This document shows, piece after piece, positions 34,832-40,800 of a stretch of 64,000 nt of DNA. Both the position numbers and the translations under genes were made by a program. The notes below the pieces were generated by a model. It made no database searches. It was given only the letters and a program-made list of their open reading frames with translations, and had not been told where the DNA came from. The first letter of the stretch is position 1, and each line of letters begins with the position of its first letter. The DNA is from Phytoseiulus persimilis (Eukaryota; Arthropoda; Arachnida; Mesostigmata; Phytoseiidae): contig CM075101.1 in assembly GCA_037576195.1 (NCBI GenBank), positions 31,062,001 to 31,126,000 of the forward strand, written 5' to 3'.

Positions 34832-37800
34832 TTATTCTTCGAAGGCCCAAACGATGCTGCTGTTTCTCGAAAGTGGCACCAACAAACGGCTGAGTTCCAT
34901 TATGTTTTGACGATACATCCAGTGTATTTGTGATGGAAACAACCCGTACCTGCAATTCGGAACCATCAGGTAGACAGACAATGATGCCTGGTGCAGTCGA
35001 CGAAGGTCTCGCGGGTCGGCGGAGAACATCGAGAGTCAACTTTTCCTGAAGTATTTCTACTAATGAATGCCTTTCATTGTGGAATGCGACTTCTTACTTT
35101 CCGTCGATCAGGACCCGGGCCGGTTTTTTGTACATGCCCAAGAGACGAATCTTGTGGATCACCAAGTTGTAGAACGGGGCAAAAAGGTGACATTTTCCCG
35201 ACATCACCGTCAAAGTCAGAGCGGTCTGTGATTCGGGGAGAATGTTAGGCACGTATTATAGAGATATAGGATATTGAGAGAGTTCTTCGAAAATACTCGA
35301 TGTTCGCATGCTCAGAGTCATCGACCTTATTGGCGACGATGTTCATCACTATGTAGTCGCCCCGTTCGAAGGACTCTGAAAGCATACAAAAATATTACTG
35401 TGTGAGTGTCCTGTGTGACTCGAGCCCTGGCATTCGAGTCGGAGGGGAACGCCATCCGCAGCTCGGAATCTCGGGACTGATGTAGATGAGAAGCCATGGG
35501 CGCTCGGATAGTCATCCTCTATGGAAGTATGGAATCTATCTTCCTCTAGTGAGAGCTTTGAGAAGGAAGTCATCTCGCTTCCGAATCGGCGAAGGCGAAA
35601 GGTTTCGATCCTGTGATTCCCGACTTGTGGTACCCGATCACCATATCGGCACCCTGAATGACGATGGGAACCTGATACTTATACAAACCTAGAGTCTCCC
35701 CATCGTCCCAATAAAGTTGTCCTTCAGAGCCATAGGTCTCGTTGTAGGCAACTATCAACGAGAGTGGACTTTTGCGGCTGAGATCCGGGAAGAAAAAAGT
35801 AGAGGATTCAAGGTTTTCAATCGAGCCCGCGTCTCAGAGCATTATACGTGTATCAGATGATTTCTCCGAATTCACGAAAGGGTGGGCAGCTGAAGTAAGG
35901 TCCAGTACAAGCTTCCACCAGGAATTTGGGGGATGGATATCGAAATCCATGAAGCCCACGAGATATGAAAGCTCATGGTTCAACTCGTACGCAAGTACGA
36001 AATTCCTGACACTCGATCTTTGGGACCATTTCAAATTCATATCAATTAATCGTAAGCGAGAATTGGGAAGTTTCCTGCTTGAGGTGAACCTCGGAAACTT
36101 TGTTCAACTCCGGAGCAATGTACCGAAGATCCGAACCGAACTCTACAAACCTCAGGTGAGTGTTTAAAGCTGGATTCTGCAGCGGGATGATCTTGCCACC
36201 GCGAACGTGGGCAACTAGGGGTTTCTCGACGGAGTACAAAGGGACGGGAACTTGTACGTAAGAGCCGCTGGTCGAGACGCGCTCTCCATTGAAGAAATCG
36301 TACCAGACTCCGGGAGGTAGATATACTTCTTTCGATACCTGATACTGGGGTCGAAACACTATTGAGACTTCTCCGCAGCAATGTATTCGTGAATTCGAAT
36401 AACTCACATCATTTGGAACCCCGAACTTGGAAATTTCCCCCAAAACTGTCCGCTCGCGGAGCAGCCACATGGAACGAGAACAAAAACTGTTTACCAAGTA
36501 TAGTGCAGGACTGAACATCAAGGCGTCACCCCACATCAATTGCTCTTCACATTTGATCGAATTACGGTCTTCTGGAAAGCTGCGAAATTCATCTCGTAAG
36601 CCACTCCACTCTGAACTGCAGTCCTCCAATGCTGAGCTGCTGGAAGAGGCTTACTTGAAGGAAAGCGGTCGAATGACACTACCACCAAAAGCATGGCTTT
36701 TGTAGAACAGAGTGTACAAGAAAGGGATCAACTGGTATCTCAGGCGTATGATTTCACGAACGGCTTTCGAGAAATCCGTGCCGTAAGTTGGCGGGTCCTG
36801 AGACTGCAAAGAAAAGCCCATACTCAATCAGTGCCCAATCGAGCTACACTGAAGCCAGACCCAATTTCGCTGCGCAGCATCTAAGGGACGGGGCAAGTCG
36901 ATAAGTTTCCGACTCACCGCAGCTTCATCCGCATTGTGATTTCGCATCAGAGGCAGAATGGCCCCGAGTTGAGTCCATCGGTAGCAGAGCTCCTGAGGCG
37001 AATCCTCGAAATGCCCACAAACATCACCGCCAACCAAAGGAACGCCGAAAATATTCATCTCCAGAGCTGCTCGCAAAGTCCAGCTGCGTGTACGAAACTG
37101 CCCGACTTCATTCGTGGCCCTTGATCCACCTGAACTGTAGCAATCGGACGTATTTGTTCGGTGAAGACTGATTATTCTAGAGAAACTGACCGCATGTCTC
37201 TCCACGAGGAGCTGTCAAGCTCATCAAACCAATGACCCGCATAACGCCCGGTTCCCAGAAATGTGCTCCGTGACACAATGAGAGGCCGTGTGCCGTTCAG
37301 GATGGACTTCATAGCGTTGTAGAAAGCGATGGCGCTGGAAAGTTCGAGCTGCCTCATTTATGCAAAACTGGCACATGTACGAATGCGCAAATCTAGGATC
37401 TCGTTGTCGATCTCGAATACCTGAAATGCCCGTAAACGTTGTGAACATTGTAATGCTTCATGGAATTTCCTTTGTAGTTGTGATTGGAATCCATGCAGAG
37501 GGTTCCGTCGAACAAAAAGCTGCCTCGCAAAGCTGGAAACGGAAGTCTCGAGTGAGCCGGCTGCGTTGGGGAGAACGGGGTCGTCGATGAACAACAATCG
37601 ACGTTCGAACGATGTTCGGGAACCGATTAATGATAAGCATCAAATCACCGGGTTTGTAATGAGGGAAGTTGAGATTGTCGTTGATGCATTCGGTTTCCAC
37701 AAAGGATTTGTTCGTGAAGTCCACAGGCTCATTGTTAGTCTGAAAGAGGAGAGATGTAGCCAGGGAATATTTTCGAAGCGATCATGAACTTGTTTGATAG

Positions 37801-40800
37801 ATCCTTGCCTCACCAGAAAAATTCCATCGAATGCCAGCCTCATCCTGTAAACTTCAAGCTCGTCCGCCAGCCACTTCCAAGAGGCCTCATTCAGAAAGTC
37901 AGGATATCCCACTTCACCCGCCCAAGAGAGCCCTTTGACGGTACCTTCGAACGAATCCCGAACAAGTATTTTACGTTTAAGGGCATTGGTGAAAGAAGAA
38001 TGTTGAACAGATAAAGCCGGCTCCATAGTGATGAGTATTCGGTAATCTCTTTTCCGGAGGTCTTCGAGCACGGCCGGGAGATCTTTGAAGCTGCCTGGCG
38101 GAATCGAAGAACTATTTTCACTTTTCAATCCAAAACCAGATTTCTGCACAGGGGAAAGGAGAAATCTTGGGGATGCGCGGTCTCAGACCGGTTTTGAAAA
38201 GAGAAGTCTGTTTCAGAAGAGCTTCAAGGAGGGAGGGGGAAGGAGCTTCAATCTCTCCAAGTAGAGTGACTCCCCTTAGGCTGTCAGTAAGCCAGTTGCC
38301 ACCCCCCCTATCCCTAGGAAAATGTGCCATTCCCTTATGTGCCATGTTCTGATGTTAATCATACAGTCACAGTTCCGAAGCAGAGAGCTCCTACTGTCGC
38401 GAGAGAGGAAACAGCGTACCATTAGTTTGTAAATTAAAGCTCTTGTGTTGCCCTCGGATATCCAGATCCAAAGAGAGACCATCCTGTGGGATCGAGTGTT
38501 TTCTCATCGCCTCCTGTTGAGTTTGTACGTAGTAGTCGCTCTTGAACCCCCATCTGTGGAGGAACGAATCTATGTATAGTTCTGGCTCGACGTCTTCTTG
38601 AACTTCTCAAAGTTCTCACGAAAATGCTGGTTGTGCCGGGATAGGACTGACTGCAAACTCCACGGGTGAAGTATAATCGTCGGACACGAAAAACAGCGAA
38701 ATATAAGGGAAAAGTTCATGCGAAATTTCATCACATGGCGCGTCGCACAGTATCGCAAGCAAATGAAGCGAATTCAAACGAGAATCATTCGCATGATACA
38801 GCGATTTCCGCAGATGCACGACACAGAATGCATTAGCTCTCCGGCCCTGATGCTCATGGAGTTTGACTAGCCTACAGGAGAACGCCAGCCCCGTCAACAA
38901 CAAACCTTCCGAGGTGAAATCCCAATGCCCAATATGGTGGCAGGAAAGGCCTTCCGATGAACGAATGGTACTGACGGAGGACATCCTCGGGAGATGGTCC
39001 CATGAAAATGTAAAAGTCTAAAACTCCTCCTATGACTCGGAACGTGAGCGATGGGGCAGGTTGCGCGTGGATCTCTGTAACATATGCCGCGTTATTCACC
39101 AAACCTAAGGGATTCGATATTTTCCATCATTACCTGATATCTTGGAGATGAGGGACTTATTTTCCAACCATTAATATACCCAGAATTCACAGTCATCGAT
39201 GGAATTTCAAAGATCTTGCACTTTCCGTAATAGACGGAGCGTTGCTACATCGTGCCAATTCATCGGGATTCACATGCGTGCACGCAACCAAAAGTTCCAT
39301 TAATTTTCTTAGCCCAAGAAGTAGTCCCTTTTCCCCCAGATTTTAGGTTGATTATAATTATTGTAGGCAAACTATTTCACCCATTGGACTGCTGTTCATC
39401 AATAGGACCCCGTGAGCGTTCCCGTCGTTCTCGATCACCATGTAGAAGGGCTGAGATCCATGTCTGTTGCCCTGCATTCCCTAAAACGTGAGACGGCGTT
39501 TTAATCAGGCGTGAGTTTCGCTCGTACCATACCTGCCCAAGCCGCACTATTGATTCCTACCGTACAGTGGAAATTATCAGAGCCACTGATAGAAGAGGAG
39601 CAGAGATAGGACATACATTAGGTGGATAAGTTTCAGCATTGAAGAGAGGGTAGGTTTTGTAGTTGAGATCCACTTTGATTCCTGCTTTCATGTGCTCGCC
39701 GATGCCGTACACGTTGTGCGAAGGGAGGAGCGTTGTGATCTGTTTGCACGGAGAAAGAGACGGGATTCAGCTCAGTGAAGACTCGTTTGACGACCGAACA
39801 TTCGTCGAGAAGCCGCCAAATGACTCAATTGACAGTCCATCAAGACGATGTTCCAGTTGCGCCCCGAGTGTCTAATTACTTCTATAAATTGTCCCGAGAA
39901 GATCAGCGCCCCGACCGAAGTGTCGAAAACCGTCGTCCCGGTCGCGGATCTCCGAATTATGATGTCCTGCGGAACGATAAATTTCAATTATGATCATAAT
40001 CATTAGGATCGCAGTCATCATTATCGCTATCGCGCGGAACGTATTCTGTTCAGAGCTTCAGTGATCTGTGTGTGGCCGGGTGGCCGACAGACGGGCTGGC
40101 CGGTGGCCGCAAAACTCCGCCTTGACTCGCTTGCGACCCGCGGTCAATAATCATTTTTCGGTGTCGGAGATGACGGATGGGCCGCCAATCGAGAATCCGT
40201 TTAGCCTTCGACGATCTTTGGATCGATACGATCTAAATTCCCATTGAATTATCGATAATAATAATAACAACTTATCAGCGGCATCCGTCGTTAGCCTGAA
40301 AACGCATCAGCCGCCGACATCAATTACGGCACACGAGGCAGCCGTTGGCGCAACACACATTTTAATTTTGAACACCCTCCCAGGAAACGCGGACGCCGGC
40401 AACGAGTGAACGACGTGAGGGGAAACATCTTACTTGTTTATCGCTGAAGGGGAAAATTTTGTTGTAAGACACGGCATATGCCTCCATTGAGGCGTTCGAA
40501 TTCCCTTGATGTACAGGCAGCGACGGGGAAGGGACTTCGGCGCGCTCCTCTTTGGGATCGGATACCTAGGGAATAGATCAGTAGAGGTCCCAGCTGAATT
40601 CGTCGAGATTTGCGTGCTTCAATCGAATTTCTGGATCGGTCCTCGAAAGCGCCACTCACTTTGATTCGCAACCTATCGGTTGTCTGATGCTCGATGCGGA
40701 GCGTGACATAAGCTGCTTCGTCCCCGTACCTCATGGGTGATTCATCTTTATCTAGGATGTATTCGTATCCTCTGGTGCACACGGGGTTCGGGCCAGAGAA

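What the first reader, a model, noticed from the sequence alone, without database searches (positions are those of the whole stretch)
37649..38094. GH31 protein with its catalytic nucleophile replaced by Thr
The exon join at 37814/37739 gives FDGIFL then TNNEPVDF. Human GAA and maltase-glucoamylase have FDGMWIDMNEPSNF at this place, at the same length. The nucleophile Asp (WIDMNE) is Thr562 here, while NEP and FDG are kept. Both exon borders are phase 0 and have good splice sites, and all 22 exons join in frame, so this is not a decayed pseudogene. The protein is a membrane-anchored, trefoil-bearing pseudoenzyme, perhaps a receptor or scaffold, as rBAT and 4F2hc are for another glycosidase family.
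Basis: partly seen in the sequence, partly recalled or inferred. Interest (0 to 1): 0.85.

Follow-up and report, generated by a model that had tools for sequence, protein, structure and literature searches.

The report
Dead sugar-cutting enzyme kept by chelicerates
A predatory mite carries an intact gene for a membrane-bound relative of sugar-digesting enzymes whose key catalytic amino acid is gone; the relatives found in ticks, other mites, spiders, scorpions and the horseshoe crab have lost it too, so the protein probably took on another job long ago.

Summary
The minus-strand gene (41615-34832) splices into 22 exons, 990 residues, no stops: tail, membrane span, trefoil, GH31 domains. It reads FDGIFL|TNNEP at a phase-0 junction: Thr550, not 562. 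Five Asp-bearing paralogues in the same genome break at the same place, WI|DMNEP. New: the loss is not local. All 19 family rows put on the tree (mites, ticks, spiders, scorpions, Limulus, unnamed contigs) lack the Asp (Thr/Ser/Glu/Val/Ile) and form one clade (100/100) in the maltase-glucoamylase-like group. Residues conserved in enzymes are lost above all in the pocket, weakly so in mites alone. A C-terminal signature is in 20 of 23 family proteins and 0 of 308 others. Best reading: an old membrane-tethered pseudo-alpha-glucosidase acting as a binding or scaffold protein. Absence of ordinary activity is strongly inferred; the scaffold role is a guess consistent with the data. Nine full-text searches aimed at it listed no description.

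The parts
41464..41615 (-). exon 1: start codon, cytoplasmic tail (aa 1-50)
   Evidence: similar N-terminus in Galendromus P0001
41281..41376 (-). exon 2: hydrophobic membrane span (best 19-residue window starts at aa 63)
   Evidence: helix 54-85 in the P0001 model
40995..41184 (-). exon 3: stalk and most of the trefoil domain
   Evidence: PF00088 30.3 bits on the draft model
40660..40842 (-). exon 4: end of trefoil, N-terminal beta domain
40434..40565 (-). exon 5: N-terminal beta domain
39880..39966 (-). exon 6: N-terminal beta domain
39617..39739 (-). exon 7: N-terminal beta domain
39381..39480 (-). exon 8: N-terminal beta domain
38906..39074 (-). exon 9: start of the GH31 TIM barrel
38420..38553 (-). 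exon 10: TIM barrel with the D404-equivalent Asp440 (kept)
37814..38094 (-). exon 11: TIM barrel up to FDGIFL; W481 equivalent Trp513 kept, W516 equivalent is Phe548
37649..37739 (-). exon 12: begins with Thr550 in place of the catalytic nucleophile Asp (TNNEPVDF)
37737..37739 (-). codon ACT, Thr550, at the nucleophile position
37421..37532 (-). exon 13: TIM barrel
37191..37334 (-). exon 14: TIM barrel with kept Arg639 (R600 equivalent) and altered acid/base motif [12 protein letters not shown] (Glu655 at the D616 column)
36918..37083 (-). exon 15: TIM barrel with GGDVCGH and RNHN (H674 equivalent His714 kept)
36655..36803 (-). exon 16: end of TIM barrel
36495..36579 (-). exon 17: proximal beta domain
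   Evidence: PF21365 67.4 bits on the draft
36151..36344 (-). exon 18: proximal beta domain
35689..35777 (-). exon 19: distal beta domain
35326..35375 (-). exon 20: distal beta domain
35098..35225 (-). exon 21: distal beta domain, start of the clade-typical C-terminal segment
34832..34949 (-). exon 22: C-terminal segment with signature [10 protein letters not shown], and stop codon

Best explanation
The gene encodes a membrane-anchored protein (type II orientation inferred) of the maltase-glucoamylase/sucrase-isomaltase branch of GH31 that cannot work as an ordinary retaining alpha-glucosidase, because the nucleophile Asp is Thr and, in mites, the acid/base Asp is displaced. It belongs to a family that most simply lost the nucleophile once, by the common ancestor of the horseshoe crab and the arachnids sampled, and has kept fold, anchor and trefoil since, while the pocket eroded to different degrees by lineage. 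Most likely it works without catalysis, as a membrane-tethered binding or scaffold protein whose shared contact surface lies outside the pocket; the clade-typical C-terminal segment is one candidate. In mites and ticks the pocket, which keeps several sugar-contacting residues, may still bind a sugar. Shown: gene model, substitutions, one clade, pocket-biased loss, C-terminal signature. Inferred: no glycosidase activity (about 0.9), a binding/scaffold role (about 0.6), the C-terminal segment as contact site (about 0.3).
For: Intact 22-exon frame. 0 of 19 clade rows have Asp at the nucleophile, 34 of 34 enzyme rows do. One clade, bootstrap/SH-aLRT 100/100; two D-to-not-D changes on the tree, the other in Toxocara, whose union with the clade is rejected at p-AU 0.0065. 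With the motif columns masked, 23 of 337 proteins fit the clade profile better than the enzyme profile, and 0 of the 22 that hold the site have Asp. Of 100 columns at least 90% conserved in enzymes, the 10 that are pocket residues named in the GAA paper are all kept below 85% in the clade against 27 of 90 others (p 2e-5; without the nucleophile 9 of 9 against 27 of 90, p 5e-5); below 50%, 7 of 10 against 13 of 90 (p 4e-4). A hydrophobic span stands before the trefoil in 20 of 20 clade members with a trefoil match. C-terminal signature in 20 of 23 clade proteins and 0 of 308 others. Model of the Galendromus orthologue: mean pLDDT 82, TM-score 0.95 to GAA by target length, 0.81 by query length.
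Against: No activity, partner or localisation data. In mites alone the pocket bias is weak (below 85%: 5 of 10 against 17 of 90, p 0.04; without the nucleophile p 0.09). Ticks keep the acid/base Asp and most of the pocket, so changed chemistry or ligand binding there is not excluded. Against the C-terminal segment as the shared contact site: the distal C-terminal part is the least alike between mites and ticks (identity 0.33 against 0.44 in the barrel), and its signature was picked after seeing the clade. No dN/dS was computed, as no relative's coding DNA was at hand. Each protein search listed only its best 120, so chelicerate proteins beyond that were not seen.
Confidence: 0.75

Rival explanations
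1. A sugar-binding sensor or lectin: the pocket of ticks and mites still binds an alpha-glucoside end group without cutting it.
For: The four mites keep the equivalents of W376, D404, W481, R600, W613 and H674; the five ticks keep W376, D404 (4 of 5), W481, W516, R600, W613, D616 and F649 (4 of 5).
Against: In the ten other clade rows W376 and F649 are kept in 0, D404, W481 and R600 in 1 each, D616 in 2 and W613 in 4; only W516 (9) and the H674 column (8) are mostly kept. So this is hardly the role of the whole family. Ticks have Asn (4) or Tyr (1) for H674.
Confidence: 0.25
2. An enzyme with changed chemistry: Thr/Ser at the nucleophile supports transfer, inverting or substrate-assisted cleavage in ticks and mites.
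For: Five of five ticks keep the acid/base Asp; Thr (or Ser) together with Asn for H674 is seen in four of five ticks and, on a separate branch, in Toxocara domain 2.
Against: The site drifts to Glu, Val and Ile in other lineages, and mites displaced the acid/base too. I recall no GH31 enzyme with a Thr nucleophile (recalled, not searched).
Confidence: 0.08
3. A recent pseudogene or an annotation artefact in one mite genome.
For: None beyond the odd residue itself.
Against: No stop or frameshift over 22 exons, same residue in three other mesostigmatan mites and in ticks, shared intron site.
Confidence: 0.01
4. Several independent losses of the nucleophile in ticks/mites, spiders and scorpions rather than one.
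For: Different residues stand there (T/S, V/I, E), and mites and ticks join at only 88/82.
Against: One change suffices for the clade, and no clade member with Asp was seen.
Confidence: 0.15

Closest known systems
Maltase-glucoamylase / sucrase-isomaltase (GH31, membrane-anchored enzymes)
   Same: Trefoil and GH31 domains; best phmmer hits 9kz6 and 2qly; the clade nests in a 41-row group with MGAM-like domains.
   Different: One GH31 unit, while vertebrate MGAM/SI have two; nucleophile Asp absent in 19 of 19 clade rows; C-terminal signature.
Lysosomal acid alpha-glucosidase (GAA)
   Same: Same domain order; top Foldseek hit 5nn8, TM-score 0.95 by target length.
   Different: Here membrane-anchored; GAA rows stand outside the 41-row group, among them five Asp-bearing paralogues of this very genome.
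rBAT and 4F2hc (SLC3 heavy chains)
   Same: Glycosidase-like ectodomain on a single membrane span (recalled); PMC8063059 (passages seen) says the sandfly heavy chains lack the catalytic residues.
   Different: GH13, not GH31 (recalled); no light-chain partner shown here.
NET37/MYORG-type GH31 proteins predicted inactive in insects
   Same: GH31 members with a catalytic residue missing: sandfly NET37 1 and 2 have Pro at the proton donor (PMC8063059, passages seen).
   Different: Another GH31 type; a prediction for one species.
Toxocara canis two-domain GH31 protein (P0028)
   Same: Ser and Thr at the two nucleophile places.
   Different: Two GH31 domains; groups elsewhere on the tree, and union with the chelicerate clade is rejected.

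Membership tests
GH31 | GH31 sequence family and fold | tested here: met
   PF01055 268.7 bits, PF21365 67.4 bits on the draft model; model of orthologue P0001 TM-score 0.95 to GAA by target length
GH31 (as active retaining alpha-glucosidase) | Catalytic nucleophile Asp in WIDMNE | tested here: not met
   Thr550
GH31 (as active retaining alpha-glucosidase) | Acid/base Asp (D616 of GAA) | tested here: not met
   Glu at the column plus one inserted residue in four of four mites; Asp kept in five of five ticks
GH31 (as active retaining alpha-glucosidase) | Hydrolysis of alpha-glucosides | not testable with these tools
   needs recombinant protein
MGAM/SI-like branch | Nests with MGAM/SI-type domains rather than GAA | tested here: met
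   41-row group at 100/100, GAA rows outside it
MGAM/SI-like branch | Membrane span followed by trefoil | tested here: met
   (hydropathy; orientation inferred)
Pseudoenzyme (conserved catalytically dead family) | Catalytic residues absent while frame and fold are kept in several species | tested here: met
Pseudoenzyme (conserved catalytically dead family) | Purifying selection by dN/dS | not tested
   no relative's coding DNA available
SLC3 heavy chains (rBAT/4F2hc) | GH13-type domain | tested here: not met
   Pfam lists GH31 domains and trefoil only; Foldseek rows shown are GH31
SLC3 heavy chains (rBAT/4F2hc) | Disulfide-linked transporter partner | not testable with these tools
   no interaction data

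The most novel reading that the evidence does not exclude
Early chelicerates evolved a GH31-based counterpart of the GH13 heavy chains: a catalytically dead maltase that became an obligate membrane subunit or receptor, with its contact surface in the clade-typical C-terminal segment and a trafficking signal in a juxtamembrane Cys-Cys tail motif (15 of 20 members, mites not among them, against 1 of 150 other proteins with a hydrophobic stretch before the trefoil).
Probability: 0.25. Interest if true: 0.85.

Novelty: new variant of a known kind. Interest (0 to 1): 0.72.

Why it matters
A glycosidase relative that apparently lost its nucleophile once and was then kept in a horseshoe crab, scorpions, spiders, ticks and mites is a clean case of an old enzyme turned into something else. 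Databases call the mite proteins maltase or sucrase-isomaltase, which is very probably wrong as a function. It offers a membrane protein, seen in these searches only in chelicerates, to study in ticks, Varroa and predatory mites, and a natural series in which a pocket erodes step by step.

Tried and rejected
Alternative donors and acceptors around 37814/37739 were read by eye in the sequence, not by a program; none seen gives a WID-like motif. Pseudogene: rejected. Common origin with the Toxocara protein: rejected at p-AU 0.0065, a test chosen after the quick tree was seen. The first gene draft (982 residues, used) had missed one intron, had three wrong borders and lacked the last exon; it was corrected by comparison with P0001. 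One search translated exon 11 in the wrong frame and was ignored. The first pocket test used some wrong columns and is replaced. The first C-terminal pattern was mis-spaced (5 of 23) and is replaced; both patterns were made after seeing the clade's sequences. The tree used 19 of 23 clade proteins (P0037, P0121, P0245, P0284 left out as partial or oddly predicted) and 34 chosen enzyme rows: 29 domain rows out of the 308 other proteins and five stitched paralogues; the sixth, GANAB-like (C2:43.9 Mb), was only in the quick tree. treekit warned of odd letter make-up in three rows. Two of the 12 pocket sites, W376 and I441, are not 90% conserved in the enzyme rows and so are not in the test. The structure search gave fold only; pocket geometry was not measured.
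Full report
What is there. On the minus strand, 41615-34832, 22 exons (21 introns, each GT...AG) join in frame into a 990-residue protein without stops. The draft model was corrected by comparison with the 989-residue Galendromus occidentalis protein P0001, 90% identical over draft residues 380-800. Galendromus is a phytoseiid mite, so the window is very probably from another phytoseiid (inference); the assembly has 181 Mb. Pfam finds trefoil, mutarotase-like N-domain, GH31 barrel and C-domain in the draft, and DUF5110 below its cut-off. 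A hydrophobic span precedes the trefoil; it is a helix in the model of P0001.

The junction. Exon 11 ends FDGIFL, exon 12 starts TNNEP, in phase 0. Five GAA-type paralogues in the same genome (C1:26.1 Mb, C4:27.2 Mb, three on C40) break exactly between WI and DMNEP (5 of 5). The splice site is thus shared, and the first codon of the exon is the one that differs. Human GAA's nucleophile is D518 and its acid/base D616 (PMC5653652, passages, section 7 read). In the window the D616 column holds Glu and one residue is inserted beside it.

How far it goes. Galendromus, Tropilaelaps and Varroa read FDG[IL]FLTNNEP. Tick proteins read FDG[LI]WI[TS].NEP, including the soft tick Ornithodoros. The scorpion rows have Glu, the five spider rows Val or Ile, Limulus Thr. 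Over 330 retrieved proteins a motif pattern matched with D 435 times, T 12, I 3, S 2, E 2 and V 1; 13 proteins had no match, of which P0288, P0297 and P0323 proved clade members with altered neighbours and P0284 a clade member lacking the stretch. The 20 non-Asp matches are all in clade members or the two Toxocara domains. In a motif-masked profile comparison 23 of 337 proteins (330 retrieved, the window, six own paralogues) fit the clade better than the enzymes; 22 hold the site and none has Asp. The clade profile was built from 19 of these 23, so only four are new to it. Each search listed only its best 120.

The tree. Fifty-five rows, 800 columns, IQ-TREE: the 19 chelicerate rows form one clade at 100/100, inside a 41-row MGAM/SI-like group (100/100), with GAA rows and the own-genome paralogues outside it. 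D versus not-D needs two changes. The second is in Toxocara canis P0028, whose union with the clade is rejected (p-AU 0.0065). The chelicerate loss therefore most simply predates the split of Limulus from the arachnids sampled; an age of several hundred million years is general knowledge, not a result here.

What is kept and what is lost. Of 100 columns with one residue in at least 90% of 34 enzyme rows, 10 are among the 12 pocket residues taken from the GAA paper. All 10 fall under 85% retention in the clade (weighted by lineage) against 27 of 90 others, p 2e-5; without the nucleophile 9 of 9 against 27 of 90, p 5e-5; at a 50% limit 7 of 10 against 13 of 90, p 4e-4. For ticks alone 5 of 10 against 2 of 90, p 6e-5. 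For mites alone 5 of 10 against 17 of 90, p 0.04, and p 0.09 without the nucleophile: the mite result alone would be weak. Mites keep the W376, D404, W481, R600, W613 and H674 equivalents. Ticks keep most of the pocket except D518, M519 and H674. In the ten other rows (spiders, scorpions, Limulus, P0278) D404, W481 and R600 are kept in 1 each, D616 in 2, W613 in 4, W516 in 9 and the H674 column in 8. Of 22 columns conserved in the clade but not in enzymes, 10 lie in residues 920-978. A signature there, Y.L...[QH]..W, is in 20 of 23 clade proteins (the other three end differently) and 0 of 308 others. Against weight on that region: it is the part least alike between mites and ticks (identity 0.33, barrel 0.44), though not between these and spiders (0.40, barrel 0.36). 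A juxtamembrane Cys-Cys pair stands in 15 of 20 clade members against 1 of 150 others with a hydrophobic stretch before the trefoil; the window, Galendromus and Tropilaelaps lack it.

Structure. AlphaFold2 on P0001 with 30 sequences: mean pLDDT 82.3, pTM 0.85. Foldseek: GAA 5nn8 first (TM-score 0.95 by target length, 0.81 by query length), MGAM and SI N-terminal units at 0.94-0.95 by target length. The fold is predicted whole. The window's own spliced protein was not modelled.

What it does. No catalysis of the usual kind is expected: the nucleophile is Thr and the acid/base displaced. What the family shares is anchor, trefoil, fold and C-terminal signature, not the pocket, so a binding or scaffold role outside the pocket is the best reading; a sugar-binding role is possible in mites and ticks. 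This is inference.

In print. Nine searches of the held library aimed at such a family listed no paper on it; titles and starts of abstracts were seen, for 10 of 40 papers. A tenth sought pocket data. Most subscription journals are not held. The nearest is PMC8063059 (passages seen), which predicts that two NET37-type GH31 proteins of a sandfly lack activity. PMC4398375 (passages seen) lists alpha-glucosidase and family 31 transcripts in a scorpion without, in those passages, saying which branch they belong to.

Noticed in passing
L012 (G000:C1:44233000-44240500, minus strand, 603-residue open frame): A MYORG/NET37-like GH31 protein (138.6 bits to 7qqh) reads FVFQGGQSS where MYORG has FKFDAGEVS: perhaps a second GH31 protein without its nucleophile in this genome (that this Asp is MYORG's nucleophile is recalled).
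   Followed up: partly
P0028, Toxocara canis: A two-domain trefoil/GH31 protein has Ser and Thr at its two nucleophile places, an apparently independent loss; domain 2 also has Asn at the H674 column, as four of five ticks do.
   Followed up: partly
L013, L014 (G000:C40:1-17000): Three GAA-like copies with DMNEP stand close together on a 100-kb contig.
   Followed up: partly
12251-14410: A repeat-like stretch open for 720 codons on the plus strand, with long open frames on the minus strand as well.
   Followed up: no
P0033, Ixodes scapularis: The database protein holds the same barrel segment twice, probably a faulty gene model.
   Followed up: no
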